A DNA stretch of 64,000 bases from Owenia fusiformis. Taxonomy: Eukaryota > Annelida > Polychaeta > Sabellida > Oweniidae. Position 1 is the first letter of the stretch. Every line of letters begins with the position of its first letter. The stretch covers positions 1 through 64,000 of the forward strand of contig CAIIXF020000147.1 of NCBI GenBank assembly GCA_903813345.2. The letters run 5' to 3'. A program made the translations under genes and the position numbers. The notes beneath the pieces were generated by a model. The model was given only the letters and a program-made list of their open reading frames with translations. It was not told where the DNA came from and searched no databases. Positions 30,470-58,715 of the stretch are shown piece after piece.

Positions 30470-30753
30470 AAGAAGAAGAAGAATACTGGCAAAAACAATA
30501 GACTCCAGATTGACATCTGGAGTCTAATAATAAGAAAACCGGCAAAAGCAATAGACTCCAGATTTTCAATCTGGAGTCTAATAATAAGAAGAAGAAGAAT
30601 AAGAATACTGGCAAAAACAATAGACTCCAGATTGACATCTGGAGTCTAATAATAAGAATACTGGCAAAAACAATAGACTCCAGATTGACATCTGGAGTCT
30701 AATAAGAAAACTGACGAAAACAATAGACTCCAGATTTCATCTGGAGTCTAATA
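30470..30753 (+). repeat. H2 hairpin minisatellite, five units
   Basis: (AAG)n tract followed by five tandem units of 50-69 bp, each AA(A/T)AC(T/C)GGCAAAA(A/G)CAA plus a near-perfect hairpin: 30499-30526, 30552-30580, 30621-30648, 30674-30701 and 30724-30750. Arms are TAGACTCCAGAT and ATCTGGAGTCTA. Loops vary (TGAC, TTC or TTTTCAA-type), while arms do not. The length variation is due to (AAT)/(AAG) linkers. The last hairpin is joined by ATA to the first base of the 714-bp satellite. Confidence 0.93.
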
Positions 30754-31467
30754 ATAGGATTTGGCCATACGCGTATAGAGGGAAATGGCTCTAGGGACGC
30801 TTTGAGGGCCTATAATGGTCGATTGAAGGACAGGGAATCTAGGGAGGTAGTTGGGGAGAATGTCTGGCTCGTGCTTCGCGGATCCGTCGAGGTCAAAAAA
30901 TAGTCCTTCAAAAAATAGGCCTTCCAGACGTCTATATAGAGCTTTCGACGTAGATTCGAGCAGCGTACGCGTCGTTCTACATTCCGCAATCGTTAGTTTG
31001 AGGAAGGGAATCGTTGTTTACGAAATGCTCTAGTCATCGTTCGGGCCTATTTTCTTTCAAATGTCTGTTGTTCGCAGAGATACGTATACCAAGTGTATTC
31101 GTGCCGTCTAGATATACGGCAACGGTGGCCCGTACGCGAACTTCAAACGCGTATATCTCGATAACTAATGGTCGGATTTCAATTTGGTTCACTGTTTTTT
31201 TAATGCTCGGAAAACTGTCTTTCCGACCAGCTAGTTCTCCTCCGATTCTGACTTCTTAAGGAGGCTCGAGAGGCCGAAATAGCGGAAATGCAGATTTCGA
31301 CCTAGATTTCGACCTTTGACCCAGATAAGGATTTGACCTAATTTCCGAGCAACTACGCCTAGCCCCCTAACAACGTGCATGAGTAGATTTATCCAAATAT
31401 CTCTCGTTGATGAGAACGTGTGGTTAGAAAGATTTTTGCTTTTGCACATACAAAAGCAAAAATCATA
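30754..31467 (+). repeat. Reference 714-bp monomer (copy 1) with internal landmarks
   Basis: Offsets 1-400 hold the CpG-rich half: ACGCGT three times, a CTATATAGAG TATA-like element near 30940, and a local duplication of AAAAAATAG(G)(T/C)CTTC near 30895-30927. Around 31156-31190 ATATCTCGATAACTAATGG / TCGGATTTCAATTTGGTT resembles the M box (CCATAACTTCCG / TCGGATCGAAATTTGGTT). From about 31255 the sequence follows the T module: AGGAGGCTCGAGAGGCCGAA, then four GACC(T/C) boxes with a DR1-like CGACCTTTGACCC at 31310-31322, AATTTCCGAGCAACTA, and GATGAGAACGTGTGGTTAG. It ends with a perfect hairpin. About 49 CpG dinucleotides were counted by hand. Confidence 0.9.
31431..31464. other. H3 hairpin closing each 714-bp monomer
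   Basis: Perfect inverted repeat, arms GATTTTTGCTTTTG and CAAAAGCAAAAATC (14 bp), loop CACATA. It is the last feature of every monomer, three bases before the next one begins. It occupies the same place as H2 in the minisatellite units and H1 near the end of T modules, but its sequence is unrelated. In copy 12 (39288-39291) one T of the left arm is missing, giving a bulge. Confidence 0.93.
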
Positions 31468-34400
31468 ATAGGATTTGGCCATACGCGTATAGAGGGAAAT
31501 GGCTCTAGGGACGCTTTGAGGGCCTATAATGGTCGATTGAAGGACAGGGAATCTAGGGAGGTAGTTGGGGAGAATGTCTGGCTCGTGCTTCGCGGATCCG
31601 TCGAGGTCAAAAAATAGTCCTTCAAAAAATAGGCCTTCCAGACGTCTATATAGAGCTTTCGACGTAGATTCGAGCAGCGTACGCGTCGTTCTACATTCCG
31701 CAATCGTTAGTTTGAGGAAGGGAATCGTTGTTTACGAAATGCTCTAGTCATCGTTCGGGCCTATTTTCTTTCAAATGTCTGTTGTTCGCAGAGATACGTA
31801 TACCAAGTGTATTCGTGCCGTCTAGATATACGGCAACGGTGGCCCGTACGCGAACTTCAAACGCGTATATCTCGATAACTAATGGTCGGATTTCAATTTG
31901 GTTCACTGTTTTTTTAATGCTCGGAAAACTGTCTTTCCGACCAGCTAGTTCTCCTCCGATTCTGACTTCTTAAGGAGGCTCGAGAGGCCGAAATAGCGGA
32001 AATGCAGATTTCGACCTAGATTTCGACCTTTGACCCAGATAAGGATTTGACCTAATTTCCGAGCAACTACGCCTAGCCCCCTAACAACGTGCATGAGTAG
32101 ATTTATCCAAATATCTCTCGTTGATGAGAACGTGTGGTTAGAAAGATTTTTGCTTTTGCACATACAAAAGCAAAAATCATAATAGGATTTGGCCATACGC
32201 GTATAGAGGGAAATGGCTCTAGGGACGCTTTGAGGGCCTATAATGGTCGATTGAAGGACAGGGAATCTAGGGAGGTAGTTGGGGAGAATGTCTGGCTCGT
32301 GCTTCGCGGATCCGTCGAGGTCAAAAAATAGTCCTTCAAAAAATAGGCCTTCCAGACGTCTATATAGAGCTTTCGACGTAGATTCGAGCAGCGTACGCGT
32401 CGTTCTACATTCCGCAATCGTTAGTTTGAGGAAGGGAATCGTTGTTTACGAAATGCTCTAGTCATCGTTCGGGCCTATTTTCTTTCAAATGTCTGTTGTT
32501 CGCAGAGATACGTATACCAAGTGTATTCGTGCCGTCTAGATATACGGCAACGGTGGCCCGTACGCGAACTTCAAACGCGTATATCTCGATAACTAATGGT
32601 CGGATTTCAATTTGGTTCACTGTTTTTTTAATGCTCGGAAAACTGTCTTTCCGACCAGCTAGTTCTCCTCCGATTCTGACTTCTTAAGGAGGCTCGAGAG
32701 GCCGAAATAGCGGAAATGCAGATTTCGACCTAGATTTCGACCTTTGACCCAGATAAGGATTTGACCTAATTTCCGAGCAACTACGCCTAGCCCCCTAACA
32801 ACGTGCATGAGTAGATTTATCCAAATATCTCTCGTTGATGAGAACGTGTGGTTAGAAAGATTTTTGCTTTTGCACATACAAAAGCAAAAATCATAATAGG
32901 ATTTGGCCATACGCGTATAGAGGGAAATGGCTCTAGGGACGCTTTGAGGGCCTATAATGGTCGATTGAAGGACAGGGAATCTAGGGAGGTAGTTGGGGAG
33001 AATGTCTGGCTCGTGCTTCGCGGATCCGTCGAGGTCAAAAAATAGTCCTTCAAAAAATAGGCCTTCCAGACGTCTATATAGAGCTTTCGACGTAGATTCG
33101 AGCAGCGTACGCGTCGTTCTACATTCCGCAATCGTTAGTTTGAGGAAGGGAATCGTTGTTTACGAAATGCTCTAGTCATCGTTCGGGCCTATTTTCTTTC
33201 AAATGTCTGTTGTTCGCAGAGATACGTATACCAAGTGTATTCGTGCCGTCTAGATATACGGCAACGGTGGCCCGTACGCGAACTTCAAACGCGTATATCT
33301 CGATAACTAATGGTCGGATTTCAATTTGGTTCACTGTTTTTTTAATGCTCGGAAAACTGTCTTTCCGACCAGCTAGTTCTCCTCCGATTCTGACTTCTTA
33401 AGGAGGCTCGAGAGGCCGAAATAGCGGAAATGCAGATTTCGACCTAGATTTCGACCTTTGACCCAGATAAGGATTTGACCTAATTTCCGAGCAACTACGC
33501 CTAGCCCCCTAACAACGTGCATGAGTAGATTTATCCAAATATCTCTCGTTGATGAGAACGTGTGGTTAGAAAGATTTTTGCTTTTGCACATACAAAAGCA
33601 AAAATCATAATAGGATTTGGCCATACGCGTATAGAGGGAAATGGCTCTAGGGACGCTTTGAGGGCCTATAATGGTCGATTGAAGGACAGGGAATCTAGGG
33701 AGGTAGTTGGGGAGAATGTCTGGCTCGTGCTTCGCGGATCCGTCGAGGTCAAAAAATAGTCCTTCAAAAAATAGGCCTTCCAGACGTCTATATAGAGCTT
33801 TCGACGTAGATTCGAGCAGCGTACGCGTCGTTCTACATTCCGCAATCGTTAGTTTGAGGAAGGGAATCGTTGTTTACGAAATGCTCTAGTCATCGTTCGG
33901 GCCTATTTTCTTTCAAATGTCTGTTGTTCGCAGAGATACGTATACCAAGTGTATTCGTGCCGTCTAGATATACGGCAACGGTGGCCCGTACGCGAACTTC
34001 AAACGCGTATATCTCGATAACTAATGGTCGGATTTCAATTTGGTTCACTGTTTTTTTAATGCTCGGAAAACTGTCTTTCCGACCAGCTAGTTCTCCTCCG
34101 ATTCTGACTTCTTAAGGAGGCTCGAGAGGCCGAAATAGCGGAAATGCAGATTTCGACCTAGATTTCGACCTTTGACCCAGATAAGGATTTGACCTAATTT
34201 CCGAGCAACTACGCCTAGCCCCCTAACAACGTGCATGAGTAGATTTATCCAAATATCTCTCGTTGATGAGAACGTGTGGTTAGAAAGATTTTTGCTTTTG
34301 CACATACAAAAGCAAAAATCATAATAGGATTTGGCCATACGCGTATAGAGGGAAATGGCTCTAGGGACGCTTTGAGGGCCTATAATGGTCGATTGAAGGA

Positions 34401-36946
34401 CAGGGAATCTAGGGAGGTAGTTGGGGAGAATGTCTGGCTCGTGCTTCGCGGATCCGTCGAGGTCAAAAAATAGTCCTTCAAAAAATAGGCCTTCCAGACG
34501 TCTATATAGAGCTTTCGACGTAGATTCGAGCAGCGTACGCGTCGTTCTACATTCCGCAATCGTTAGTTTGAGGAAGGGAATCGTTGTTTACGAAATGCTC
34601 TAGTCATCGTTCGGGCCTATTTTCTTTCAAATGTCTGTTGTTCGCAGAGATACGTATACCAAGTGTATTCGTGCCGTCTAGATATACGGCAACGGTGGCC
34701 CGTACGCGAACTTCAAACGCGTATATCTCGATAACTAATGGTCGGATTTCAATTTGGTTCACTGTTTTTTTAATGCTCGGAAAACTGTCTTTCCGACCAG
34801 CTAGTTCTCCTCCGATTCTGACTTCTTAAGGAGGCTCGAGAGGCCGAAATAGCGGAAATGCAGATTTCGACCTAGATTTCGACCTTTGACCCAGATAAGG
34901 ATTTGACCTAATTTCCGAGCAACTACGCCTAGCCCCCTAACAACGTGCATGAGTAGATTTATCCAAATATCTCTCGTTGATGAGAACGTGTGGTTAGAAA
35001 GATTTTTGCTTTTGCACATACAAAAGCAAAAATCATAATAGGATTTGGCCATACGCGTATAGAGGGAAATGGCTCTAGGGACGCTTTGAGGGCCTATAAT
35101 GGTCGATTGAAGGACAGGGAATCTAGGGAGGTAGTTGGGGAGAATGTCTGGCTCGTGCTTCGCGGATCCGTCGAGGTCAAAAAATAGTCCTTCAAAAAAT
35201 AGGCCTTCCAGACGTCTATATAGAGCTTTCGACGTAGATTCGAGCAGCGTACGCGTCGTTCTACATTCCGCAATCGTTAGTTTGAGGAAGGGAATCGTTG
35301 TTTACGAAATGCTCTAGTCATCGTTCGGGCCTATTTTCTTTCAAATGTCTGTTGTTCGCAGAGATACGTATACCAAGTGTATTCGTGCCGTCTAGATATA
35401 CGGCAACGGTGGCCCGTACGCGAACTTCAAACGCGTATATCTCGATAACTAATGGTCGGATTTCAATTTGGTTCACTGTTTTTTTAATGCTCGGAAAACT
35501 GTCTTTCCGACCAGCTAGTTCTCCTCCGATTCTGACTTCTTAAGGAGGCTCGAGAGGCCGAAATAGCGGAAATGCAGATTTCGACCTAGATTTCGACCTT
35601 TGACCCAGATAAGGATTTGACCTAATTTCCGAGCAACTACGCCTAGCCCCCTAACAACGTGCATGAGTAGATTTATCCAAATATCTCTCGTTGATGAGAA
35701 CGTGTGGTTAGAAAGATTTTTGCTTTTGCACATACAAAAGCAAAAATCATAATAGGATTTGGCCATACGCGTATAGAGGGAAATGGCTCTAGGGACGCTT
35801 TGAGGGCCTATAATGGTCGATTGAAGGACAGGGAATCTAGGGAGGTAGTTGGGGAGAATGTCTGGCTCGTGCTTCGCGGATCCGTCGAGGTCAAAAAATA
35901 GTCCTTCAAAAAATAGGCCTTCCAGACGTCTATATAGAGCTTTCGACGTAGATTCGAGCAGCGTACGCGTCGTTCTACATTCCGCAATCGTTAGTTTGAG
36001 GAAGGGAATCGTTGTTTACGAAATGCTCTAGTCATCGTTCGGGCCTATTTTCTTTCAAATGTCTGTTGTTCGCAGAGATACGTATACCAAGTGTATTCGT
36101 GCCGTCTAGATATACGGCAACGGTGGCCCGTACGCGAACTTCAAACGCGTATATCTCGATAACTAATGGTCGGATTTCAATTTGGTTCACTGTTTTTTTA
36201 ATGCTCGGAAAACTGTCTTTCCGACCAGCTAGTTCTCCTCCGATTCTGACTTCTTAAGGAGGCTCGAGAGGCCGAAATAGCGGAAATGCAGATTTCGACC
36301 TAGATTTCGACCTTTGACCCAGATAAGGATTTGACCTAATTTCCGAGCAACTACGCCTAGCCCCCTAACAACGTGCATGAGTAGATTTATCCAAATATCT
36401 CTCGTTGATGAGAACGTGTGGTTAGAAAGATTTTTGCTTTTGCACATACAAAAGCAAAAATCATAATAGGATTTGGCCATACGCGTATAGAGGGAAATGG
36501 CTCTAGGGACGCTTTGAGGGCCTATAATGGTCGATTGAAGGACAGGGAATCTAGGGAGGTAGTTGGGGAGAATGTCTGGCTCGTGCTTCGCGGATCCGTC
36601 GAGGTCAAAAAATAGTCCTTCAAAAAATAGGCCTTCCAGACGTCTATATAGAGCTTTCGACGTAGATTCGAGCAGCGTACGCGTCGTTCTACATTCCGCA
36701 ATCGTTAGTTTGAGGAAGGGAATCGTTGTTTACGAAATGCTCTAGTCATCGTTCGGGCCTATTTTCTTTCAAATGTCTGTTGTTCGCAGAGATACGTATA
36801 CCAAGTGTATTCGTGCCGTCTAGATATACGGCAACGGTGGCCCGTACGCGAACTTCAAACGCGTATATCTCGATAACTAATGGTCGGATTTCAATTTGGT
36901 TCACTGTTTTTTTAATGCTCGGAAAACTGTCTTTCCGACCAGCTAG

Positions 36947-36949
36947 TTT
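36947..36949 (+). other. Satellite variant: +T in copy 9
   Basis: AGCTAGTTTCTCC instead of AGCTAGTTCTCC. The extra T joins two minus-strand frames into one of 149 codons (36746-37195). The same change occurs in copy 21. Confidence 0.9.
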
Positions 36950-39287
36950 CTCCTCCGATTCTGACTTCTTAAGGAGGCTCGAGAGGCCGAAATAGCGGAA
37001 ATGCAGATTTCGACCTAGATTTCGACCTTTGACCCAGATAAGGATTTGACCTAATTTCCGAGCAACTACGCCTAGCCCCCTAACAACGTGCATGAGTAGA
37101 TTTATCCAAATATCTCTCGTTGATGAGAACGTGTGGTTAGAAAGATTTTTGCTTTTGCACATACAAAAGCAAAAATCATAATAGGATTTGGCCATACGCG
37201 TATAGAGGGAAATGGCTCTAGGGACGCTTTGAGGGCCTATAATGGTCGATTGAAGGACAGGGAATCTAGGGAGGTAGTTGGGGAGAATGTCTGGCTCGTG
37301 CTTCGCGGATCCGTCGAGGTCAAAAAATAGTCCTTCAAAAAATAGGCCTTCCAGACGTCTATATAGAGCTTTCGACGTAGATTCGAGCAGCGTACGCGTC
37401 GTTCTACATTCCGCAATCGTTAGTTTGAGGAAGGGAATCGTTGTTTACGAAATGCTCTAGTCATCGTTCGGGCCTATTTTCTTTCAAATGTCTGTTGTTC
37501 GCAGAGATACGTATACCAAGTGTATTCGTGCCGTCTAGATATACGGCAACGGTGGCCCGTACGCGAACTTCAAACGCGTATATCTCGATAACTAATGGTC
37601 GGATTTCAATTTGGTTCACTGTTTTTTTAATGCTCGGAAAACTGTCTTTCCGACCAGCTAGTTCTCCTCCGATTCTGACTTCTTAAGGAGGCTCGAGAGG
37701 CCGAAATAGCGGAAATGCAGATTTCGACCTAGATTTCGACCTTTGACCCAGATAAGGATTTGACCTAATTTCCGAGCAACTACGCCTAGCCCCCTAACAA
37801 CGTGCATGAGTAGATTTATCCAAATATCTCTCGTTGATGAGAACGTGTGGTTAGAAAGATTTTTGCTTTTGCACATACAAAAGCAAAAATCATAATAGGA
37901 TTTGGCCATACGCGTATAGAGGGAAATGGCTCTAGGGACGCTTTGAGGGCCTATAATGGTCGATTGAAGGACAGGGAATCTAGGGAGGTAGTTGGGGAGA
38001 ATGTCTGGCTCGTGCTTCGCGGATCCGTCGAGGTCAAAAAATAGTCCTTCAAAAAATAGGCCTTCCAGACGTCTATATAGAGCTTTCGACGTAGATTCGA
38101 GCAGCGTACGCGTCGTTCTACATTCCGCAATCGTTAGTTTGAGGAAGGGAATCGTTGTTTACGAAATGCTCTAGTCATCGTTCGGGCCTATTTTCTTTCA
38201 AATGTCTGTTGTTCGCAGAGATACGTATACCAAGTGTATTCGTGCCGTCTAGATATACGGCAACGGTGGCCCGTACGCGAACTTCAAACGCGTATATCTC
38301 GATAACTAATGGTCGGATTTCAATTTGGTTCACTGTTTTTTTAATGCTCGGAAAACTGTCTTTCCGACCAGCTAGTTCTCCTCCGATTCTGACTTCTTAA
38401 GGAGGCTCGAGAGGCCGAAATAGCGGAAATGCAGATTTCGACCTAGATTTCGACCTTTGACCCAGATAAGGATTTGACCTAATTTCCGAGCAACTACGCC
38501 TAGCCCCCTAACAACGTGCATGAGTAGATTTATCCAAATATCTCTCGTTGATGAGAACGTGTGGTTAGAAAGATTTTTGCTTTTGCACATACAAAAGCAA
38601 AAATCATAATAGGATTTGGCCATACGCGTATAGAGGGAAATGGCTCTAGGGACGCTTTGAGGGCCTATAATGGTCGATTGAAGGACAGGGAATCTAGGGA
38701 GGTAGTTGGGGAGAATGTCTGGCTCGTGCTTCGCGGATCCGTCGAGGTCAAAAAATAGTCCTTCAAAAAATAGGCCTTCCAGACGTCTATATAGAGCTTT
38801 CGACGTAGATTCGAGCAGCGTACGCGTCGTTCTACATTCCGCAATCGTTAGTTTGAGGAAGGGAATCGTTGTTTACGAAATGCTCTAGTCATCGTTCGGG
38901 CCTATTTTCTTTCAAATGTCTGTTGTTCGCAGAGATACGTATACCAAGTGTATTCGTGCCGTCTAGATATACGGCAACGGTGGCCCGTACGCGAACTTCA
39001 AACGCGTATATCTCGATAACTAATGGTCGGATTTCAATTTGGTTCACTGTTTTTTTAATGCTCGGAAAACTGTCTTTCCGACCAGCTAGTTCTCCTCCGA
39101 TTCTGACTTCTTAAGGAGGCTCGAGAGGCCGAAATAGCGGAAATGCAGATTTCGACCTAGATTTCGACCTTTGACCCAGATAAGGATTTGACCTAATTTC
39201 CGAGCAACTACGCCTAGCCCCCTAACAACGTGCATGAGTAGATTTATCCAAATATCTCTCGTTGATGAGAACGTGTGGTTAGAAAGA

Positions 39288-39291
39288 TTTT
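39288..39291 (+). other. Satellite variant: -T in copy 12 (hairpin arm)
   Basis: GATTTTGC instead of GATTTTTGC, placing a one-base bulge in the H3 hairpin. Only this copy shows it. Confidence 0.9.
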
Positions 39292-42200
39292 GCTTTTGCA
39301 CATACAAAAGCAAAAATCATAATAGGATTTGGCCATACGCGTATAGAGGGAAATGGCTCTAGGGACGCTTTGAGGGCCTATAATGGTCGATTGAAGGACA
39401 GGGAATCTAGGGAGGTAGTTGGGGAGAATGTCTGGCTCGTGCTTCGCGGATCCGTCGAGGTCAAAAAATAGTCCTTCAAAAAATAGGCCTTCCAGACGTC
39501 TATATAGAGCTTTCGACGTAGATTCGAGCAGCGTACGCGTCGTTCTACATTCCGCAATCGTTAGTTTGAGGAAGGGAATCGTTGTTTACGAAATGCTCTA
39601 GTCATCGTTCGGGCCTATTTTCTTTCAAATGTCTGTTGTTCGCAGAGATACGTATACCAAGTGTATTCGTGCCGTCTAGATATACGGCAACGGTGGCCCG
39701 TACGCGAACTTCAAACGCGTATATCTCGATAACTAATGGTCGGATTTCAATTTGGTTCACTGTTTTTTTAATGCTCGGAAAACTGTCTTTCCGACCAGCT
39801 AGTTCTCCTCCGATTCTGACTTCTTAAGGAGGCTCGAGAGGCCGAAATAGCGGAAATGCAGATTTCGACCTAGATTTCGACCTTTGACCCAGATAAGGAT
39901 TTGACCTAATTTCCGAGCAACTACGCCTAGCCCCCTAACAACGTGCATGAGTAGATTTATCCAAATATCTCTCGTTGATGAGAACGTGTGGTTAGAAAGA
40001 TTTTTGCTTTTGCACATACAAAAGCAAAAATCATAATAGGATTTGGCCATACGCGTATAGAGGGAAATGGCTCTAGGGACGCTTTGAGGGCCTATAATGG
40101 TCGATTGAAGGACAGGGAATCTAGGGAGGTAGTTGGGGAGAATGTCTGGCTCGTGCTTCGCGGATCCGTCGAGGTCAAAAAATAGTCCTTCAAAAAATAG
40201 GCCTTCCAGACGTCTATATAGAGCTTTCGACGTAGATTCGAGCAGCGTACGCGTCGTTCTACATTCCGCAATCGTTAGTTTGAGGAAGGGAATCGTTGTT
40301 TACGAAATGCTCTAGTCATCGTTCGGGCCTATTTTCTTTCAAATGTCTGTTGTTCGCAGAGATACGTATACCAAGTGTATTCGTGCCGTCTAGATATACG
40401 GCAACGGTGGCCCGTACGCGAACTTCAAACGCGTATATCTCGATAACTAATGGTCGGATTTCAATTTGGTTCACTGTTTTTTTAATGCTCGGAAAACTGT
40501 CTTTCCGACCAGCTAGTTCTCCTCCGATTCTGACTTCTTAAGGAGGCTCGAGAGGCCGAAATAGCGGAAATGCAGATTTCGACCTAGATTTCGACCTTTG
40601 ACCCAGATAAGGATTTGACCTAATTTCCGAGCAACTACGCCTAGCCCCCTAACAACGTGCATGAGTAGATTTATCCAAATATCTCTCGTTGATGAGAACG
40701 TGTGGTTAGAAAGATTTTTGCTTTTGCACATACAAAAGCAAAAATCATAATAGGATTTGGCCATACGCGTATAGAGGGAAATGGCTCTAGGGACGCTTTG
40801 AGGGCCTATAATGGTCGATTGAAGGACAGGGAATCTAGGGAGGTAGTTGGGGAGAATGTCTGGCTCGTGCTTCGCGGATCCGTCGAGGTCAAAAAATAGT
40901 CCTTCAAAAAATAGGCCTTCCAGACGTCTATATAGAGCTTTCGACGTAGATTCGAGCAGCGTACGCGTCGTTCTACATTCCGCAATCGTTAGTTTGAGGA
41001 AGGGAATCGTTGTTTACGAAATGCTCTAGTCATCGTTCGGGCCTATTTTCTTTCAAATGTCTGTTGTTCGCAGAGATACGTATACCAAGTGTATTCGTGC
41101 CGTCTAGATATACGGCAACGGTGGCCCGTACGCGAACTTCAAACGCGTATATCTCGATAACTAATGGTCGGATTTCAATTTGGTTCACTGTTTTTTTAAT
41201 GCTCGGAAAACTGTCTTTCCGACCAGCTAGTTCTCCTCCGATTCTGACTTCTTAAGGAGGCTCGAGAGGCCGAAATAGCGGAAATGCAGATTTCGACCTA
41301 GATTTCGACCTTTGACCCAGATAAGGATTTGACCTAATTTCCGAGCAACTACGCCTAGCCCCCTAACAACGTGCATGAGTAGATTTATCCAAATATCTCT
41401 CGTTGATGAGAACGTGTGGTTAGAAAGATTTTTGCTTTTGCACATACAAAAGCAAAAATCATAATAGGATTTGGCCATACGCGTATAGAGGGAAATGGCT
41501 CTAGGGACGCTTTGAGGGCCTATAATGGTCGATTGAAGGACAGGGAATCTAGGGAGGTAGTTGGGGAGAATGTCTGGCTCGTGCTTCGCGGATCCGTCGA
41601 GGTCAAAAAATAGTCCTTCAAAAAATAGGCCTTCCAGACGTCTATATAGAGCTTTCGACGTAGATTCGAGCAGCGTACGCGTCGTTCTACATTCCGCAAT
41701 CGTTAGTTTGAGGAAGGGAATCGTTGTTTACGAAATGCTCTAGTCATCGTTCGGGCCTATTTTCTTTCAAATGTCTGTTGTTCGCAGAGATACGTATACC
41801 AAGTGTATTCGTGCCGTCTAGATATACGGCAACGGTGGCCCGTACGCGAACTTCAAACGCGTATATCTCGATAACTAATGGTCGGATTTCAATTTGGTTC
41901 ACTGTTTTTTTAATGCTCGGAAAACTGTCTTTCCGACCAGCTAGTTCTCCTCCGATTCTGACTTCTTAAGGAGGCTCGAGAGGCCGAAATAGCGGAAATG
42001 CAGATTTCGACCTAGATTTCGACCTTTGACCCAGATAAGGATTTGACCTAATTTCCGAGCAACTACGCCTAGCCCCCTAACAACGTGCATGAGTAGATTT
42101 ATCCAAATATCTCTCGTTGATGAGAACGTGTGGTTAGAAAGATTTTTGCTTTTGCACATACAAAAGCAAAAATCATAATAGGATTTGGCCATACGCGTAT

Positions 42201-43332: not shown

Positions 43333-43338
43333 TTTTTT
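43333..43338 (+). other. Satellite variant: -T in copy 18
   Basis: T run of six instead of seven before AATGCTCGG. The same change occurs in copy 24. Confidence 0.9.
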
Positions 43339-45513: not shown

Positions 45514-45516
45514 TTT
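45514..45516 (+). other. Satellite variant: +T in copy 21
   Basis: Same extra T as copy 9, twelve monomers later; again creates a 149-codon minus-strand frame (45313-45762). Confidence 0.9.
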
Positions 45517-47616: not shown

Positions 47617-47622
47617 TTTTTT
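47617..47622 (+). other. Satellite variant: -T in copy 24
   Basis: T run of six instead of seven, as in copy 18, six monomers earlier. Confidence 0.9.
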
Positions 47623-50600
47623 AATGCTCGGAAAACTGTCTTTCCGACCAGCTAGTTCTCCTCCGATTCTGACTTCTTAAGGAGGCTCGAGAGGCCGAAA
47701 TAGCGGAAATGCAGATTTCGACCTAGATTTCGACCTTTGACCCAGATAAGGATTTGACCTAATTTCCGAGCAACTACGCCTAGCCCCCTAACAACGTGCA
47801 TGAGTAGATTTATCCAAATATCTCTCGTTGATGAGAACGTGTGGTTAGAAAGATTTTTGCTTTTGCACATACAAAAGCAAAAATCATAATAGGATTTGGC
47901 CATACGCGTATAGAGGGAAATGGCTCTAGGGACGCTTTGAGGGCCTATAATGGTCGATTGAAGGACAGGGAATCTAGGGAGGTAGTTGGGGAGAATGTCT
48001 GGCTCGTGCTTCGCGGATCCGTCGAGGTCAAAAAATAGTCCTTCAAAAAATAGGCCTTCCAGACGTCTATATAGAGCTTTCGACGTAGATTCGAGCAGCG
48101 TACGCGTCGTTCTACATTCCGCAATCGTTAGTTTGAGGAAGGGAATCGTTGTTTACGAAATGCTCTAGTCATCGTTCGGGCCTATTTTCTTTCAAATGTC
48201 TGTTGTTCGCAGAGATACGTATACCAAGTGTATTCGTGCCGTCTAGATATACGGCAACGGTGGCCCGTACGCGAACTTCAAACGCGTATATCTCGATAAC
48301 TAATGGTCGGATTTCAATTTGGTTCACTGTTTTTTTAATGCTCGGAAAACTGTCTTTCCGACCAGCTAGTTCTCCTCCGATTCTGACTTCTTAAGGAGGC
48401 TCGAGAGGCCGAAATAGCGGAAATGCAGATTTCGACCTAGATTTCGACCTTTGACCCAGATAAGGATTTGACCTAATTTCCGAGCAACTACGCCTAGCCC
48501 CCTAACAACGTGCATGAGTAGATTTATCCAAATATCTCTCGTTGATGAGAACGTGTGGTTAGAAAGATTTTTGCTTTTGCACATACAAAAGCAAAAATCA
48601 TAATAGGATTTGGCCATACGCGTATAGAGGGAAATGGCTCTAGGGACGCTTTGAGGGCCTATAATGGTCGATTGAAGGACAGGGAATCTAGGGAGGTAGT
48701 TGGGGAGAATGTCTGGCTCGTGCTTCGCGGATCCGTCGAGGTCAAAAAATAGTCCTTCAAAAAATAGGCCTTCCAGACGTCTATATAGAGCTTTCGACGT
48801 AGATTCGAGCAGCGTACGCGTCGTTCTACATTCCGCAATCGTTAGTTTGAGGAAGGGAATCGTTGTTTACGAAATGCTCTAGTCATCGTTCGGGCCTATT
48901 TTCTTTCAAATGTCTGTTGTTCGCAGAGATACGTATACCAAGTGTATTCGTGCCGTCTAGATATACGGCAACGGTGGCCCGTACGCGAACTTCAAACGCG
49001 TATATCTCGATAACTAATGGTCGGATTTCAATTTGGTTCACTGTTTTTTTAATGCTCGGAAAACTGTCTTTCCGACCAGCTAGTTCTCCTCCGATTCTGA
49101 CTTCTTAAGGAGGCTCGAGAGGCCGAAATAGCGGAAATGCAGATTTCGACCTAGATTTCGACCTTTGACCCAGATAAGGATTTGACCTAATTTCCGAGCA
49201 ACTACGCCTAGCCCCCTAACAACGTGCATGAGTAGATTTATCCAAATATCTCTCGTTGATGAGAACGTGTGGTTAGAAAGATTTTTGCTTTTGCACATAC
49301 AAAAGCAAAAATCATAATAGGATTTGGCCATACGCGTATAGAGGGAAATGGCTCTAGGGACGCTTTGAGGGCCTATAATGGTCGATTGAAGGACAGGGAA
49401 TCTAGGGAGGTAGTTGGGGAGAATGTCTGGCTCGTGCTTCGCGGATCCGTCGAGGTCAAAAAATAGTCCTTCAAAAAATAGGCCTTCCAGACGTCTATAT
49501 AGAGCTTTCGACGTAGATTCGAGCAGCGTACGCGTCGTTCTACATTCCGCAATCGTTAGTTTGAGGAAGGGAATCGTTGTTTACGAAATGCTCTAGTCAT
49601 CGTTCGGGCCTATTTTCTTTCAAATGTCTGTTGTTCGCAGAGATACGTATACCAAGTGTATTCGTGCCGTCTAGATATACGGCAACGGTGGCCCGTACGC
49701 GAACTTCAAACGCGTATATCTCGATAACTAATGGTCGGATTTCAATTTGGTTCACTGTTTTTTTAATGCTCGGAAAACTGTCTTTCCGACCAGCTAGTTC
49801 TCCTCCGATTCTGACTTCTTAAGGAGGCTCGAGAGGCCGAAATAGCGGAAATGCAGATTTCGACCTAGATTTCGACCTTTGACCCAGATAAGGATTTGAC
49901 CTAATTTCCGAGCAACTACGCCTAGCCCCCTAACAACGTGCATGAGTAGATTTATCCAAATATCTCTCGTTGATGAGAACGTGTGGTTAGAAAGATTTTT
50001 GCTTTTGCACATACAAAAGCAAAAATCATAATAGGATTTGGCCATACGCGTATAGAGGGAAATGGCTCTAGGGACGCTTTGAGGGCCTATAATGGTCGAT
50101 TGAAGGACAGGGAATCTAGGGAGGTAGTTGGGGAGAATGTCTGGCTCGTGCTTCGCGGATCCGTCGAGGTCAAAAAATAGTCCTTCAAAAAATAGGCCTT
50201 CCAGACGTCTATATAGAGCTTTCGACGTAGATTCGAGCAGCGTACGCGTCGTTCTACATTCCGCAATCGTTAGTTTGAGGAAGGGAATCGTTGTTTACGA
50301 AATGCTCTAGTCATCGTTCGGGCCTATTTTCTTTCAAATGTCTGTTGTTCGCAGAGATACGTATACCAAGTGTATTCGTGCCGTCTAGATATACGGCAAC
50401 GGTGGCCCGTACGCGAACTTCAAACGCGTATATCTCGATAACTAATGGTCGGATTTCAATTTGGTTCACTGTTTTTTTAATGCTCGGAAAACTGTCTTTC
50501 CGACCAGCTAGTTCTCCTCCGATTCTGACTTCTTAAGGAGGCTCGAGAGGCCGAAATAGCGGAAATGCAGATTTCGACCTAGATTTCGACCTTTGACCCA

Positions 50601-53600
50601 GATAAGGATTTGACCTAATTTCCGAGCAACTACGCCTAGCCCCCTAACAACGTGCATGAGTAGATTTATCCAAATATCTCTCGTTGATGAGAACGTGTGG
50701 TTAGAAAGATTTTTGCTTTTGCACATACAAAAGCAAAAATCATAATAGGATTTGGCCATACGCGTATAGAGGGAAATGGCTCTAGGGACGCTTTGAGGGC
50801 CTATAATGGTCGATTGAAGGACAGGGAATCTAGGGAGGTAGTTGGGGAGAATGTCTGGCTCGTGCTTCGCGGATCCGTCGAGGTCAAAAAATAGTCCTTC
50901 AAAAAATAGGCCTTCCAGACGTCTATATAGAGCTTTCGACGTAGATTCGAGCAGCGTACGCGTCGTTCTACATTCCGCAATCGTTAGTTTGAGGAAGGGA
51001 ATCGTTGTTTACGAAATGCTCTAGTCATCGTTCGGGCCTATTTTCTTTCAAATGTCTGTTGTTCGCAGAGATACGTATACCAAGTGTATTCGTGCCGTCT
51101 AGATATACGGCAACGGTGGCCCGTACGCGAACTTCAAACGCGTATATCTCGATAACTAATGGTCGGATTTCAATTTGGTTCACTGTTTTTTTAATGCTCG
51201 GAAAACTGTCTTTCCGACCAGCTAGTTCTCCTCCGATTCTGACTTCTTAAGGAGGCTCGAGAGGCCGAAATAGCGGAAATGCAGATTTCGACCTAGATTT
51301 CGACCTTTGACCCAGATAAGGATTTGACCTAATTTCCGAGCAACTACGCCTAGCCCCCTAACAACGTGCATGAGTAGATTTATCCAAATATCTCTCGTTG
51401 ATGAGAACGTGTGGTTAGAAAGATTTTTGCTTTTGCACATACAAAAGCAAAAATCATAATAGGATTTGGCCATACGCGTATAGAGGGAAATGGCTCTAGG
51501 GACGCTTTGAGGGCCTATAATGGTCGATTGAAGGACAGGGAATCTAGGGAGGTAGTTGGGGAGAATGTCTGGCTCGTGCTTCGCGGATCCGTCGAGGTCA
51601 AAAAATAGTCCTTCAAAAAATAGGCCTTCCAGACGTCTATATAGAGCTTTCGACGTAGATTCGAGCAGCGTACGCGTCGTTCTACATTCCGCAATCGTTA
51701 GTTTGAGGAAGGGAATCGTTGTTTACGAAATGCTCTAGTCATCGTTCGGGCCTATTTTCTTTCAAATGTCTGTTGTTCGCAGAGATACGTATACCAAGTG
51801 TATTCGTGCCGTCTAGATATACGGCAACGGTGGCCCGTACGCGAACTTCAAACGCGTATATCTCGATAACTAATGGTCGGATTTCAATTTGGTTCACTGT
51901 TTTTTTAATGCTCGGAAAACTGTCTTTCCGACCAGCTAGTTCTCCTCCGATTCTGACTTCTTAAGGAGGCTCGAGAGGCCGAAATAGCGGAAATGCAGAT
52001 TTCGACCTAGATTTCGACCTTTGACCCAGATAAGGATTTGACCTAATTTCCGAGCAACTACGCCTAGCCCCCTAACAACGTGCATGAGTAGATTTATCCA
52101 AATATCTCTCGTTGATGAGAACGTGTGGTTAGAAAGATTTTTGCTTTTGCACATACAAAAGCAAAAATCATAATAGGATTTGGCCATACGCGTATAGAGG
52201 GAAATGGCTCTAGGGACGCTTTGAGGGCCTATAATGGTCGATTGAAGGACAGGGAATCTAGGGAGGTAGTTGGGGAGAATGTCTGGCTCGTGCTTCGCGG
52301 ATCCGTCGAGGTCAAAAAATAGTCCTTCAAAAAATAGGCCTTCCAGACGTCTATATAGAGCTTTCGACGTAGATTCGAGCAGCGTACGCGTCGTTCTACA
52401 TTCCGCAATCGTTAGTTTGAGGAAGGGAATCGTTGTTTACGAAATGCTCTAGTCATCGTTCGGGCCTATTTTCTTTCAAATGTCTGTTGTTCGCAGAGAT
52501 ACGTATACCAAGTGTATTCGTGCCGTCTAGATATACGGCAACGGTGGCCCGTACGCGAACTTCAAACGCGTATATCTCGATAACTAATGGTCGGATTTCA
52601 ATTTGGTTCACTGTTTTTTTAATGCTCGGAAAACTGTCTTTCCGACCAGCTAGTTCTCCTCCGATTCTGACTTCTTAAGGAGGCTCGAGAGGCCGAAATA
52701 GCGGAAATGCAGATTTCGACCTAGATTTCGACCTTTGACCCAGATAAGGATTTGACCTAATTTCCGAGCAACTACGCCTAGCCCCCTAACAACGTGCATG
52801 AGTAGATTTATCCAAATATCTCTCGTTGATGAGAACGTGTGGTTAGAAAGATTTTTGCTTTTGCACATACAAAAGCAAAAATCATAATAGGATTTGGCCA
52901 TACGCGTATAGAGGGAAATGGCTCTAGGGACGCTTTGAGGGCCTATAATGGTCGATTGAAGGACAGGGAATCTAGGGAGGTAGTTGGGGAGAATGTCTGG
53001 CTCGTGCTTCGCGGATCCGTCGAGGTCAAAAAATAGTCCTTCAAAAAATAGGCCTTCCAGACGTCTATATAGAGCTTTCGACGTAGATTCGAGCAGCGTA
53101 CGCGTCGTTCTACATTCCGCAATCGTTAGTTTGAGGAAGGGAATCGTTGTTTACGAAATGCTCTAGTCATCGTTCGGGCCTATTTTCTTTCAAATGTCTG
53201 TTGTTCGCAGAGATACGTATACCAAGTGTATTCGTGCCGTCTAGATATACGGCAACGGTGGCCCGTACGCGAACTTCAAACGCGTATATCTCGATAACTA
53301 ATGGTCGGATTTCAATTTGGTTCACTGTTTTTTTAATGCTCGGAAAACTGTCTTTCCGACCAGCTAGTTCTCCTCCGATTCTGACTTCTTAAGGAGGCTC
53401 GAGAGGCCGAAATAGCGGAAATGCAGATTTCGACCTAGATTTCGACCTTTGACCCAGATAAGGATTTGACCTAATTTCCGAGCAACTACGCCTAGCCCCC
53501 TAACAACGTGCATGAGTAGATTTATCCAAATATCTCTCGTTGATGAGAACGTGTGGTTAGAAAGATTTTTGCTTTTGCACATACAAAAGCAAAAATCATA

Positions 53601-56600
53601 ATAGGATTTGGCCATACGCGTATAGAGGGAAATGGCTCTAGGGACGCTTTGAGGGCCTATAATGGTCGATTGAAGGACAGGGAATCTAGGGAGGTAGTTG
53701 GGGAGAATGTCTGGCTCGTGCTTCGCGGATCCGTCGAGGTCAAAAAATAGTCCTTCAAAAAATAGGCCTTCCAGACGTCTATATAGAGCTTTCGACGTAG
53801 ATTCGAGCAGCGTACGCGTCGTTCTACATTCCGCAATCGTTAGTTTGAGGAAGGGAATCGTTGTTTACGAAATGCTCTAGTCATCGTTCGGGCCTATTTT
53901 CTTTCAAATGTCTGTTGTTCGCAGAGATACGTATACCAAGTGTATTCGTGCCGTCTAGATATACGGCAACGGTGGCCCGTACGCGAACTTCAAACGCGTA
54001 TATCTCGATAACTAATGGTCGGATTTCAATTTGGTTCACTGTTTTTTTAATGCTCGGAAAACTGTCTTTCCGACCAGCTAGTTCTCCTCCGATTCTGACT
54101 TCTTAAGGAGGCTCGAGAGGCCGAAATAGCGGAAATGCAGATTTCGACCTAGATTTCGACCTTTGACCCAGATAAGGATTTGACCTAATTTCCGAGCAAC
54201 TACGCCTAGCCCCCTAACAACGTGCATGAGTAGATTTATCCAAATATCTCTCGTTGATGAGAACGTGTGGTTAGAAAGATTTTTGCTTTTGCACATACAA
54301 AAGCAAAAATCATAATAGGATTTGGCCATACGCGTATAGAGGGAAATGGCTCTAGGGACGCTTTGAGGGCCTATAATGGTCGATTGAAGGACAGGGAATC
54401 TAGGGAGGTAGTTGGGGAGAATGTCTGGCTCGTGCTTCGCGGATCCGTCGAGGTCAAAAAATAGTCCTTCAAAAAATAGGCCTTCCAGACGTCTATATAG
54501 AGCTTTCGACGTAGATTCGAGCAGCGTACGCGTCGTTCTACATTCCGCAATCGTTAGTTTGAGGAAGGGAATCGTTGTTTACGAAATGCTCTAGTCATCG
54601 TTCGGGCCTATTTTCTTTCAAATGTCTGTTGTTCGCAGAGATACGTATACCAAGTGTATTCGTGCCGTCTAGATATACGGCAACGGTGGCCCGTACGCGA
54701 ACTTCAAACGCGTATATCTCGATAACTAATGGTCGGATTTCAATTTGGTTCACTGTTTTTTTAATGCTCGGAAAACTGTCTTTCCGACCAGCTAGTTCTC
54801 CTCCGATTCTGACTTCTTAAGGAGGCTCGAGAGGCCGAAATAGCGGAAATGCAGATTTCGACCTAGATTTCGACCTTTGACCCAGATAAGGATTTGACCT
54901 AATTTCCGAGCAACTACGCCTAGCCCCCTAACAACGTGCATGAGTAGATTTATCCAAATATCTCTCGTTGATGAGAACGTGTGGTTAGAAAGATTTTTGC
55001 TTTTGCACATACAAAAGCAAAAATCATAATAGGATTTGGCCATACGCGTATAGAGGGAAATGGCTCTAGGGACGCTTTGAGGGCCTATAATGGTCGATTG
55101 AAGGACAGGGAATCTAGGGAGGTAGTTGGGGAGAATGTCTGGCTCGTGCTTCGCGGATCCGTCGAGGTCAAAAAATAGTCCTTCAAAAAATAGGCCTTCC
55201 AGACGTCTATATAGAGCTTTCGACGTAGATTCGAGCAGCGTACGCGTCGTTCTACATTCCGCAATCGTTAGTTTGAGGAAGGGAATCGTTGTTTACGAAA
55301 TGCTCTAGTCATCGTTCGGGCCTATTTTCTTTCAAATGTCTGTTGTTCGCAGAGATACGTATACCAAGTGTATTCGTGCCGTCTAGATATACGGCAACGG
55401 TGGCCCGTACGCGAACTTCAAACGCGTATATCTCGATAACTAATGGTCGGATTTCAATTTGGTTCACTGTTTTTTTAATGCTCGGAAAACTGTCTTTCCG
55501 ACCAGCTAGTTCTCCTCCGATTCTGACTTCTTAAGGAGGCTCGAGAGGCCGAAATAGCGGAAATGCAGATTTCGACCTAGATTTCGACCTTTGACCCAGA
55601 TAAGGATTTGACCTAATTTCCGAGCAACTACGCCTAGCCCCCTAACAACGTGCATGAGTAGATTTATCCAAATATCTCTCGTTGATGAGAACGTGTGGTT
55701 AGAAAGATTTTTGCTTTTGCACATACAAAAGCAAAAATCATAATAGGATTTGGCCATACGCGTATAGAGGGAAATGGCTCTAGGGACGCTTTGAGGGCCT
55801 ATAATGGTCGATTGAAGGACAGGGAATCTAGGGAGGTAGTTGGGGAGAATGTCTGGCTCGTGCTTCGCGGATCCGTCGAGGTCAAAAAATAGTCCTTCAA
55901 AAAATAGGCCTTCCAGACGTCTATATAGAGCTTTCGACGTAGATTCGAGCAGCGTACGCGTCGTTCTACATTCCGCAATCGTTAGTTTGAGGAAGGGAAT
56001 CGTTGTTTACGAAATGCTCTAGTCATCGTTCGGGCCTATTTTCTTTCAAATGTCTGTTGTTCGCAGAGATACGTATACCAAGTGTATTCGTGCCGTCTAG
56101 ATATACGGCAACGGTGGCCCGTACGCGAACTTCAAACGCGTATATCTCGATAACTAATGGTCGGATTTCAATTTGGTTCACTGTTTTTTTAATGCTCGGA
56201 AAACTGTCTTTCCGACCAGCTAGTTCTCCTCCGATTCTGACTTCTTAAGGAGGCTCGAGAGGCCGAAATAGCGGAAATGCAGATTTCGACCTAGATTTCG
56301 ACCTTTGACCCAGATAAGGATTTGACCTAATTTCCGAGCAACTACGCCTAGCCCCCTAACAACGTGCATGAGTAGATTTATCCAAATATCTCTCGTTGAT
56401 GAGAACGTGTGGTTAGAAAGATTTTTGCTTTTGCACATACAAAAGCAAAAATCATAATAGGATTTGGCCATACGCGTATAGAGGGAAATGGCTCTAGGGA
56501 CGCTTTGAGGGCCTATAATGGTCGATTGAAGGACAGGGAATCTAGGGAGGTAGTTGGGGAGAATGTCTGGCTCGTGCTTCGCGGATCCGTCGAGGTCAAA

Positions 56601-58598
56601 AAATAGTCCTTCAAAAAATAGGCCTTCCAGACGTCTATATAGAGCTTTCGACGTAGATTCGAGCAGCGTACGCGTCGTTCTACATTCCGCAATCGTTAGT
56701 TTGAGGAAGGGAATCGTTGTTTACGAAATGCTCTAGTCATCGTTCGGGCCTATTTTCTTTCAAATGTCTGTTGTTCGCAGAGATACGTATACCAAGTGTA
56801 TTCGTGCCGTCTAGATATACGGCAACGGTGGCCCGTACGCGAACTTCAAACGCGTATATCTCGATAACTAATGGTCGGATTTCAATTTGGTTCACTGTTT
56901 TTTTAATGCTCGGAAAACTGTCTTTCCGACCAGCTAGTTCTCCTCCGATTCTGACTTCTTAAGGAGGCTCGAGAGGCCGAAATAGCGGAAATGCAGATTT
57001 CGACCTAGATTTCGACCTTTGACCCAGATAAGGATTTGACCTAATTTCCGAGCAACTACGCCTAGCCCCCTAACAACGTGCATGAGTAGATTTATCCAAA
57101 TATCTCTCGTTGATGAGAACGTGTGGTTAGAAAGATTTTTGCTTTTGCACATACAAAAGCAAAAATCATAATAGGATTTGGCCATACGCGTATAGAGGGA
57201 AATGGCTCTAGGGACGCTTTGAGGGCCTATAATGGTCGATTGAAGGACAGGGAATCTAGGGAGGTAGTTGGGGAGAATGTCTGGCTCGTGCTTCGCGGAT
57301 CCGTCGAGGTCAAAAAATAGTCCTTCAAAAAATAGGCCTTCCAGACGTCTATATAGAGCTTTCGACGTAGATTCGAGCAGCGTACGCGTCGTTCTACATT
57401 CCGCAATCGTTAGTTTGAGGAAGGGAATCGTTGTTTACGAAATGCTCTAGTCATCGTTCGGGCCTATTTTCTTTCAAATGTCTGTTGTTCGCAGAGATAC
57501 GTATACCAAGTGTATTCGTGCCGTCTAGATATACGGCAACGGTGGCCCGTACGCGAACTTCAAACGCGTATATCTCGATAACTAATGGTCGGATTTCAAT
57601 TTGGTTCACTGTTTTTTTAATGCTCGGAAAACTGTCTTTCCGACCAGCTAGTTCTCCTCCGATTCTGACTTCTTAAGGAGGCTCGAGAGGCCGAAATAGC
57701 GGAAATGCAGATTTCGACCTAGATTTCGACCTTTGACCCAGATAAGGATTTGACCTAATTTCCGAGCAACTACGCCTAGCCCCCTAACAACGTGCATGAG
57801 TAGATTTATCCAAATATCTCTCGTTGATGAGAACGTGTGGTTAGAAAGATTTTTGCTTTTGCACATACAAAAGCAAAAATCATAATAGGATTTGGCCATA
57901 CGCGTATAGAGGGAAATGGCTCTAGGGACGCTTTGAGGGCCTATAATGGTCGATTGAAGGACAGGGAATCTAGGGAGGTAGTTGGGGAGAATGTCTGGCT
58001 CGTGCTTCGCGGATCCGTCGAGGTCAAAAAATAGTCCTTCAAAAAATAGGCCTTCCAGACGTCTATATAGAGCTTTCGACGTAGATTCGAGCAGCGTACG
58101 CGTCGTTCTACATTCCGCAATCGTTAGTTTGAGGAAGGGAATCGTTGTTTACGAAATGCTCTAGTCATCGTTCGGGCCTATTTTCTTTCAAATGTCTGTT
58201 GTTCGCAGAGATACGTATACCAAGTGTATTCGTGCCGTCTAGATATACGGCAACGGTGGCCCGTACGCGAACTTCAAACGCGTATATCTCGATAACTAAT
58301 GGTCGGATTTCAATTTGGTTCACTGTTTTTTTAATGCTCGGAAAACTGTCTTTCCGACCAGCTAGTTCTCCTCCGATTCTGACTTCTTAAGGAGGCTCGA
58401 GAGGCCGAAATAGCGGAAATGCAGATTTCGACCTAGATTTCGACCTTTGACCCAGATAAGGATTTGACCTAATTTCCGAGCAACTACGCCTAGCCCCCTA
58501 ACAACGTGCATGAGTAGATTTATCCAAATATCTCTCGTTGATGAGAACGTGTGGTTAGAAAGATTTTTGCTTTTGCACATACAAAAGCAAAAATCATA

Positions 58599-58649
58599 CT
58601 AGACATGTAAATTGAACAAGTTCAATTTAAGACTCCAGATTTAAACTTT
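58599..58649 (+). repeat. Resumed T-module end: CTAG and H1 hairpin after the satellite
   Basis: CTAGACATGT then H1 at 58609-58628 (AAATTGAAC / GTTCAATTT) and AAGACTCCAGAT. This is the exact 3' end that unit C12 lacks before 30470. It shows that the hairpin and satellite arrays interrupt a T module between its (AAT)n tract and its CTAG-H1 end. Confidence 0.88.
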
Positions 58650-58715
58650 GTTTAAGCTGAGTCATCCAGAACTTGTAAGCTGAGTCATTCAAAATAAGCT
58701 GAGTCAGCTAGAATA
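58650..58715 (+). repeat. S2 short array
   Basis: Three AAGCTGAGTCATCCAGAA-type units ending in GCTGAGTCAGCTAGAATATA, followed by leader B. Confidence 0.8.

What the first reader, a model, noticed from the sequence alone, without database searches (positions are those of the whole stretch)
30470..58640. Hairpin-terminated cassettes stacked in tandem at one site inside a repeat module
Seen directly: in C13 the T module reads (AAT)n-ACTAG-H1 without interruption. In C8, C12 and C14 the same position is opened at the (AAT)n tract and filled with 2, 5 or 2 H2-hairpin units, and in C12 and C14 also with 714-bp monomers. In C8 and C12 the ACTAG-H1 or CTAG-H1 end resumes afterwards; C14 runs off the window. 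Every inserted unit ends in a hairpin followed by ATAATAA or ATA, so each insertion recreates the site. Inference: a 3'-hairpin-defined unit is copied and stacked at its own terminus. This is reminiscent of the 3' hairpin terminators of Helitron/Helentron rolling-circle transposons, whose non-autonomous forms can form tandem arrays. Canonical TC...CTRR ends are not evident, so this could be a distinct type.
Basis: partly seen in the sequence, partly recalled or inferred. Interest (0 to 1): 0.85.

Follow-up and report, generated by a model that had tools for sequence, protein, structure and literature searches.

The report
Self-nested non-autonomous Helitron2/Helentron transposon arrays
The repeats are copies of a protein-less rolling-circle transposon that keeps inserting into a short AAT repeat just inside its own end, so that bodies pile up like nested dolls and their displaced hairpin ends collect in a stack; the element type is known, but the stack keeps an unusually readable record of the nesting.

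Summary
In detail: C8, C12 and C14 carry 2, 5 and 2 H2 hairpin units, C12 and C14 also 714-bp monomers, where C13 reads (AAT)n-ACTAG-H1. The modules are non-autonomous Helitron2/Helentron (HINE) elements lying on the minus strand: H2 is the 5' hairpin terminus, H1 plus CTAG the 3' terminus. A 12-bp inverted repeat lies at both ends, and paralogous empty sites of two insertions show insertion at TWA-TT-A without a longer duplication. H2 units are best read as displaced 5' ends of nested elements, not inserted cassettes: each new copy lands in the (AAT)n about 50 bp inside the 5' end of an older copy. Stacks match the bodies of their own array (0 of 2000 random draws as good) in mirrored order (8 of 5000 order shuffles as good; one stack against; a stricter test was weak). 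A giant relative encoding OTU, Rep, PIF1 helicase and endonuclease carries a related tail, (AAT)n and, in one copy, a different hairpin; its other end was not resolved. Self-insertion giving multiple 5' termini is already in print for Fusarium Helitrons. The near-identical 714-bp array is only partly explained.

The parts
21383..23384 (-). Module C8: non-autonomous element body with H1+CTAG 3' end at its low-coordinate side, and two stacked 5' hairpin termini (H2) at its high-coordinate side
23237..23248 (.). (AAT)4 microsatellite of C8, just inside the 5' terminus: the proposed landing site for nested insertion
23296..23377 (-). C8 stack: two 5' terminal hairpins (AGACTCCAGATT-loop-AATCTGGAGTCT, 12-13 bp stems)
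28718..30463 (-). Module C12 body (tail type that elsewhere pairs with the TTGACA-loop H2)
30499..30750 (-). C12 stack: five 5' terminal hairpins; by eye the types fit mirrored bodies C12, C11, C10 and C8 but not C9; mirrored and forward order tie in the formal test
30757..58595 (-). 39 tandem monomers of about 714 bp, each with hairpin H3 (14-bp stem, 11 in one) and ATAATA or, in the last, ATA; 51-85 bp of the monomer (within about positions 526-609) are 81-87% identical to module tails
58597..60259 (-). Module C13, uninterrupted (AAT)4 tail followed by the next 3' end (AACTAG-H1)
58599..58629 (-). 3' terminus of C13: CTAG, spacer, H1 palindrome TAAATTGAAC/GTTCAATTTA; AGACTCCAGATT (3' inverted repeat) follows directly
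60260..62952 (-). Module C14 body with (AAT)8 at 62929-62952
62973..63055 (-). C14 stack: two 5' terminal hairpins
63060..64000 (-). Start of a second 714-bp array; its last hairpin in the contig is at C147:72349-72380, beyond the window
1165..30463 (-). Further head-to-tail modules of the same element (3' ends at 1165, 3871, 5476, 7076, 17740, 19621, 21383, 23383, 25734, 27125, 28718)

Best explanation
The window is an array of non-autonomous Helitron2/Helentron-type (HINE) elements on the minus strand. Element, 5' to 3' on that strand: T(T)AGACTCCAGATT-loop-AATCTGGAGTCTA hairpin (H2), a short spacer, an (ATT)n microsatellite, a body of ~476-bp central repeats, simple-repeat tracts, the inverted copy AATCTGGAGTCT, the H1 palindrome and CTAG. 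It is presumably mobilised in trans by a Rep/helicase/endonuclease protein (inferred) and inserts at TWA-TT-A sites without a longer target duplication (shown for two insertions by empty sites, consistent in 19 flank pairs). Its own (ATT)n tract, about 50 bp inside the 5' end, is such a site, so new copies repeatedly land there in the same orientation (inferred). Each landing pushes the older copy's 5' hairpin outwards. The result is head-to-tail bodies that keep their 3' ends but seem to lack 5' ends, with the missing 5' hairpins stacked at one side in mirrored order (supported statistically). Landings at inner junctions give internal stacks, as in C8 and C12. The 714-bp array was probably amplified later from a related hairpin-ended fragment by rolling-circle copying or unequal exchange (inferred).
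For: 20 of 20 examined C1 loci chosen for carrying H2 have module sequence upstream (12; L069 only a diverged tail and remnant); in the 12 other DNA follows. 20 of 20 sampled H1 loci start at AACTA[GA]A, 18 of them in non-module flank. 19 two-ended insertions: base before AACTAG is T in 18; after GTCTAA comes T in 19, then A/T/G 14/4/1, then A in 19. Empty sites: 40 of 40 scored candidates span the joined flanks of two insertions; 12 fetched, all with one AA where occupied sites have AA at both sides. Counts: 12 of 13 single-body insertions carry one H2 (L008 two); 7 closed arrays of 12 assembled give bodies/H2 3/3, 4/4, 2/2, 3/4, 4/3, 4/2, 5/4. 13 stacks match their own bodies: 0 of 2000 pool draws as good; order 8 of 5000 shuffles as good; mirrored better in 9, worse in 1, tied in 3. 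Seven truly adjacent pairs of window bodies are 82-92% identical, so not one concatemer. Ends match published Helitron2/HINE passages. Relative with ORF of 3146 aa: OTU, Helitron_like_N, PIF1, Exo_endo_phos, same kind of tail and (AAT)n in three copies, hairpin in one.
Against: Counts are not always equal (15.98M: 4 bodies, 2 H2; 31.60M: 3 bodies, 4 H2), and one interval of 27.10M (3.5 kb) might hold two bodies. Stack 23.42M prefers forward order in the full test. In the stricter test that leaves out the adjacent body, order alone was weak: 210 of 2000 shuffles as good. The body-to-H2 link rests on 44 usable of 45 training pairs that I took from contig C1, the 714 loci and the window. A second element at 33.08M is truncated and has no H2. 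Transposition and the direction of replication were not shown. No Rep-encoding copy with the exact H1/H2 ends was found; the two C1 Rep loci lie 82 kb and 170 kb from the nearest H1 site of the capped C1 list.
Confidence: 0.87

Rival explanations
1. Rolling-circle read-through: a circular or end-bypassing intermediate makes a tandem concatemer in one event, with truncated inner copies (the model published for plant centromeric Helitrons and cited for bat and Bombyx arrays).
For: Head-to-tail order with inner copies lacking one terminus is what such models predict (passages of PMC12628747 and PMC4067079). The 714-bp array, 34 of 39 measured units identical, fits it well.
Against: Truly adjacent module bodies in the window are 82-92% identical by best BLAST match (seven pairs) and of different tail types; a stack holds roughly one 5' end per body, matched by subtype to that array's bodies.
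Confidence: 0.07
2. Hairpin cassette stacking as first read: a ~54-bp hairpin unit is itself mobile and is copied into the (AAT)n site.
For: H2 units occur in runs of up to 7 with (AAT)n between them; L008 has one body and two identical H2 units; L069 has three H2 after a mere remnant of a module.
Against: No H2 among the 20 examined C1 loci was free of module sequence; stack subtypes follow the bodies of the same array; single-body insertions nearly always have one H2. A composite with two 5' ends, as proposed for Fusarium, explains L008.
Confidence: 0.03
3. Ordinary satellite dynamics: slippage and unequal exchange between AAT tracts and hairpin repeats duplicate and delete H2 units without transposition.
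For: AAT runs vary in length; count mismatches and repeated identical H2 neighbours (three TTTCA units at 32.78M) suggest some local duplication and loss.
Against: Does not explain dispersed copies with empty sites, nor composition and mirrored order. Probably a secondary process.
Confidence: 0.03

Closest known systems
HINE / DINE-1-like elements (non-autonomous Helentrons), e.g. HINE-Mo of a predatory mite (PMC4067079, passages) and Cg_HINE of the Pacific oyster (PMC7492417, passages)
   Same: Palindromic inverted repeat 1-2 nt from the 5' end, its copy near the 3' end next to a 3' palindrome, microsatellite near the 5' end, central satellite-like repeats, insertion at a TT dinucleotide without clear target duplication
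   Different: Longer and stricter target here (TWA-TT-A rather than oligo-T), 3' end CTAG, 3' repeat 31-33 nt from the end (38-60 in the mite), and extensive self-nesting in the 5' microsatellite
Helitron2 group (PMC3627910, passages) and proto-Helentron (PMC4067079, passages)
   Same: Asymmetric inverted repeats, hairpins at both ends; proto-Helentron of Phytophthora has 5' TT and 3' CTAG and inserts between A and T, which also fits here
   Different: No exactly matching Rep-encoding copy found here
FoHeli elements of Fusarium oxysporum (PMC5148889, passages)
   Same: 5' hairpin starting T[C/A]AG (FoHeli2), target TNAT^T, multiple short 5' termini with one 3' terminus, explained there by self-insertion
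   Different: There a few cases; here arrays from 2 bodies up to the 14 modules of the window, with a readable, mirrored stack
Tandem Helitron arrays of plant centromeres (Xiong, Dooner and Du 2016, seen only as described in PMC12628747)
   Same: Tandem arrays with several 5' ends
   Different: Explained there by rolling-circle amplification; here the bodies are diverged and the module junctions keep a 3' end

Membership tests
HINE (non-autonomous Helentron) | Identical inverted repeats of at least 11 bp near both ends | tested here: met
   AGACTCCAGATT (12 bp) in H2 and next to H1; 704+822 exact H1+repeat sites in the genome
HINE (non-autonomous Helentron) | Palindrome near the 3' end | tested here: met
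   H1, 10-bp stem, 9-10 nt from the end; outer pair T-A in some modules and G-C in others, G opposite A in others again
HINE (non-autonomous Helentron) | Insertion at a TT dinucleotide, no target site modification | tested here: met
   Two insertions with paralogous empty sites, 12 fetched of 40; whether a 2-bp TT duplication occurs cannot be told
HINE (non-autonomous Helentron) | Microsatellite and central tandem repeats, no long ORF | tested here: met
   (AAT)n and 476-bp repeats; ORFs were listed only for window 7000-17000, none of 90 aa or more
HINE (non-autonomous Helentron) | Autonomous partner with Rep-helicase-endonuclease and the same ends | tested here: inconclusive
   Relative with the domains and a similar 5' end but another hairpin; its 3' end unresolved
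Helitron2 | 5' repeat 0-2 bp from the end forming a hairpin; 3' repeat about 20-30 bp from the end, just upstream of a 3' hairpin | tested here: met
   compared with passages of PMC3627910; here the 3' distance is 31-33 nt, slightly more
Canonical Helitron (Helitron1) | 5' TC | tested here: not met
   5' end reads T(T)AGAC in the 19 two-ended insertions
Canonical Helitron (Helitron1) | 3' CTRR with a hairpin about 10 nt upstream of the end | tested here: met
   CTAG in 19 of the 20 starts (in L031 the plus strand reads CTAA, so the minus strand ends TTAG); H1 hairpin 5-6 nt further in

The most novel reading that the evidence does not exclude
The microsatellite just inside the 5' end is a selected self-landing pad: it spares host genes by directing new copies into old ones, and each nested copy leaves a composite with several 5' ends that can itself move, so the stacked hairpins are a natural recorder of insertion order across many loci in one genome, shared by at least one more family (TAGGAGGCC hairpin, 418 sites, also in runs).
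Probability: 0.3. Interest if true: 0.6.

Novelty: new member of a known kind. Interest (0 to 1): 0.42.

Why it matters
It gives a sequence-level test between two explanations for tandem Helitron arrays. Here nesting, not rolling-circle concatemerisation, best accounts for the module arrays, because displaced 5' ends can still be found and matched to the bodies. It also shows how a dispersed element can seed satellite-like arrays through a target site that it carries itself.

Tried and rejected
LINE/SINE origin for the H2-(AAT)n units: considered first, dropped because the two element ends carry one inverted repeat and a palindrome, and the empty sites lack a long duplication. Integron-like cassette recombination: an idea from the anatomy only, not tested; dropped once H2 proved to be an element end. 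A 3-bp TWA target duplication: four of 19 insertions have TTA and one TGA after the H2 end, while all 19 have AA before the H1 end, so it is not supported. Looking for the partner: the first three Rep loci read (14-15 kb each, ends not covered) showed no AGACTCCAGATT or H1 palindrome; the C6/C10 Helentron pair (99.5% identical over 8.3 kb) has another palindrome, TATGTCACCACC. The giant C1 element's low-coordinate end could not be settled: C1 and C6/C73 flanks differ, the latter two share flank.

Rows left out of counts: of 12 assembled C1 arrays, five are not closed at both ends or are truncated (24.61M, 32.78M, 32.81M, 33.08M second element, 33.36M) and are not in the body/H2 tally, though 24.61M, 32.78M and 33.36M are in the stack test; the full order test leaves out 33.08M and uses only the bodies nearest each stack; one of 45 training pairs had no tail; L069 was not used for training because its tail was not recognised (one search shows a diverged module tail and a remnant); L072 ends in an H2 that has lost one arm and was not used.

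Full report
1. Observation. C8, C12 and C14 have 2, 5 and 2 H2 hairpins; the 39 monomers of the C12 array run from 30757 to 58595. Of 39 measured monomer intervals in the window (38 in the first array, one in the second), 34 are one identical 714-bp sequence and the rest 713 or 715 bp. The genome (498 Mb, 525 contigs) holds 942+1747 matches to the H2 pattern against 51+75 for the backwards control, and 704+822 against 0+0 for H1 plus the inverted repeat.

2. H2 is an element end. I took 12 C1 loci because they carry H2. All 12 have the module body upstream, then (AAT)n or a similar tract, then one to five H2 units, then DNA that by eye is not module. Eight further H2 loci (L064-L071) also have module sequence upstream; in L069 it is only a diverged tail and a remnant of a next copy. 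Of 20 sampled H1 loci, all begin at AACTA[GA]A; 18 have other DNA before it and two (L022, L031) a module tail. So the modules are dispersed elements, bounded by CTAG-H1 and by H2.

3. Insertion site. For 19 insertions read at both ends, T precedes AACTAG in 18 of 19; after GTCTAA come T in 19, then A/T/G in 14/4/1, then A in 19. Joined host flanks of 13 insertions (one only partly) were searched; two hit other repeats of the genome, and all 40 scored candidates cover the join (12 and 28). Twelve were fetched. Each has one AA where the occupied site has AA on both sides. On the minus strand this reads TWA-TT-A: insertion within or next to TT, with at most a 2-bp duplication. The other joins gave no listed match, which is no evidence, because only the best candidates are scored.

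4. Orientation and class. On the minus strand the element begins T(T)AGACTCCAGATT-loop-AATCTGGAGTCTA and ends AATCTGGAGTCT - H1 palindrome - 5-6 nt - CTAG. Passages of PMC3627910 define Helitron2 by an 8-15 bp repeat 0-2 bp from the 5' end that pairs with following bases into a 5' hairpin, and a 3' copy just upstream of the 3' hairpin. Passages of PMC4067079 give a similar plan for HINE elements, insertion at TT without modification, and a proto-Helentron with 5' TT and 3' CTAG. PMC5148889 (passages) reports target TNAT^T for FoHeli1/2. PMC7492417 (passages) adds a microsatellite and central repeats for oyster HINEs. The element here fits these, apart from small differences in distances. The direction is inferred from this anatomy, not shown by experiment.

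5. Nesting. If a new copy lands in the (AAT)n of an older one, the older 5' hairpin is pushed out, so hairpins should equal bodies in number and mirror them in order. Of 13 single-body insertions read at both ends, 12 carry one H2 and L008 carries two (body number judged in part by the H1-H2 distance). Of 12 assembled C1 arrays, seven are closed at both ends and give bodies/H2 of 3/3 (3.94M), 4/4 (23.42M), 2/2 (3.45M), 3/4 (31.60M), 4/3 (21.19M), 4/2 (15.98M) and 5/4 (27.10M, one of the four internal, and one 3.5-kb interval that might hold two bodies). H2 subtypes go with the sequence of the adjacent body tail (44 usable of 45 pairs). With each array held out of its own training, 13 stacks match their own array's bodies better than any of 2000 random draws, and mirrored order is matched or exceeded in 8 of 5000 order shuffles; mirrored beats forward in 9 stacks, ties in 3, loses in 1 (23.42M). 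Without the adjacent body the order signal is weak, 210 of 2000, although there mirrored is better in 6 stacks, tied in 7 and worse in none. In the window the C8 stack fits bodies C8 and C7, and the C12 stack fits C12, C11, C10 and C8 but not C9 by inspection; in the formal test the C12 stack ties.

6. Not a single concatemer. Ten of the window's 14 bodies, compared by best BLAST match, are 80-97% identical (mean 86.5 over 45 pairs); the seven pairs among them that are truly adjacent are 82-92% (the call's list also prints two pairs that are not adjacent). One rolling-circle event would give near-identical bodies. Self-insertion yielding several short 5' termini with one 3' end is already described in Fusarium, with a proposed mechanism (PMC5148889, passages), and the same process would explain L008. 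Searches for nested Helitron or Helentron arrays and for Helentron hairpin and tandem papers returned no paper that, in the passages I read, describes a mirrored stack; I saw passages of eight papers (PMC7492417, PMC4067079, PMC2374699, PMC12628747, PMC4344730, PMC3627910, PMC5148889, PMC8268682) and listings of the rest, so this is weak evidence of absence.

7. The 714-bp unit. It shares 51-85 bp at 81-87% with module tails, carries its own hairpin, and in ten arrays follows an H2 unit (eight loci and the two of the window). In seven arrays whose last hairpin H3 is intact, the CTAG end of another module follows; in the other three (L043, L044, L046) H3 was not recognised, but an H1 follows. 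Flanking modules differ in subtype. I saw no second inverted repeat in the unit. I think it is a 5' fragment of a related element, amplified as a circle or by unequal exchange; why it lies between two modules each time is not explained.

8. Autonomous relative. Pfam Helitron_like_N has 58 matches in the genome, 31 of them in open frames of at least 2,500 aa, and none in 14 control genomes. One copy on C1 has an ORF of 3146 aa with OTU, Helitron_like_N, PIF1 and Exo_endo_phos domains, found in three pieces; Rep, helicase and endonuclease are the published Helentron set. About 10 kb beyond the ORF it reads into repeats 69-73% identical to the module repeats over 132-192 bp, a similar tail, (AAT)n and a TAGGAGGCCCC hairpin followed by TAATAATA. 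Two other copies (C6, C500) contain the same tail and (AAT)n, there followed by more repeat sequence instead of the hairpin. The hairpin occurs at 418 sites, often in runs (only the first 100 lines, all on C1, were listed), so another family seems to stack too. The frame runs against the 5'-3' direction, as reported for some Helitron2 elements. That the tail belongs to the Rep element, rather than to an element nested in it, is likely but not proven, and the 3' end is open.

9. Verdict. A new member of a known kind, with an unusually legible record of self-nesting.

Noticed in passing
window 7508-15448: A different element interrupts module C5: inverted ends GGTGTCTACAAAACTAAGACC with long inverted arrays of an AAAACTAAGACCCC... 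repeat (7537-8926 and 14220-15417) around about 5 kb without ORFs of 90 aa.
   Followed up: partly
window 11369-11569: Inside that insert, short similarity to sequence beyond the Helentron ORF on C6 (70 bp at 77% and 30 bp at 90%), including GGTGGTGACATTTTG.
   Followed up: partly
C6:5171500-5190500 and C10:10901100-10916500 (L040, L041, L093-L095): Two Helentron copies 99.5% identical over 8.3 kb with ORFs of about 2,500 aa and a TATGTCACCACC palindrome at one end: probably recent activity.
   Followed up: partly
genome, e.g. C1:20765733-20765932, C1:43330219-43330404: Second hairpin family TAGGAGGCC..GGCCTCCTA, 418 sites, in runs spaced about 50-60 bp; one lies about 90 bp from an H2 stack (C1:26661060).
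   Followed up: partly
L096:6876-8999: N-terminal part of the giant Rep ORF matches OTU cysteine protease and, weakly, a herpesvirus tegument protein model.
   Followed up: no
window modules, e.g. 23455-23662, 21495-21661: Near the 3' end several modules carry one of two simple repeats, AGCTGAGTAAGT or GGATAGGATAGAATAGGAAGGAA, which may mark subfamilies.
   Followed up: no
C1:33089150-33090535 and on (L062, L078): A second element at 33.08M keeps its 3' ends but is cut off after about 450 bp of its last body, without an H2 end.
   Followed up: partly
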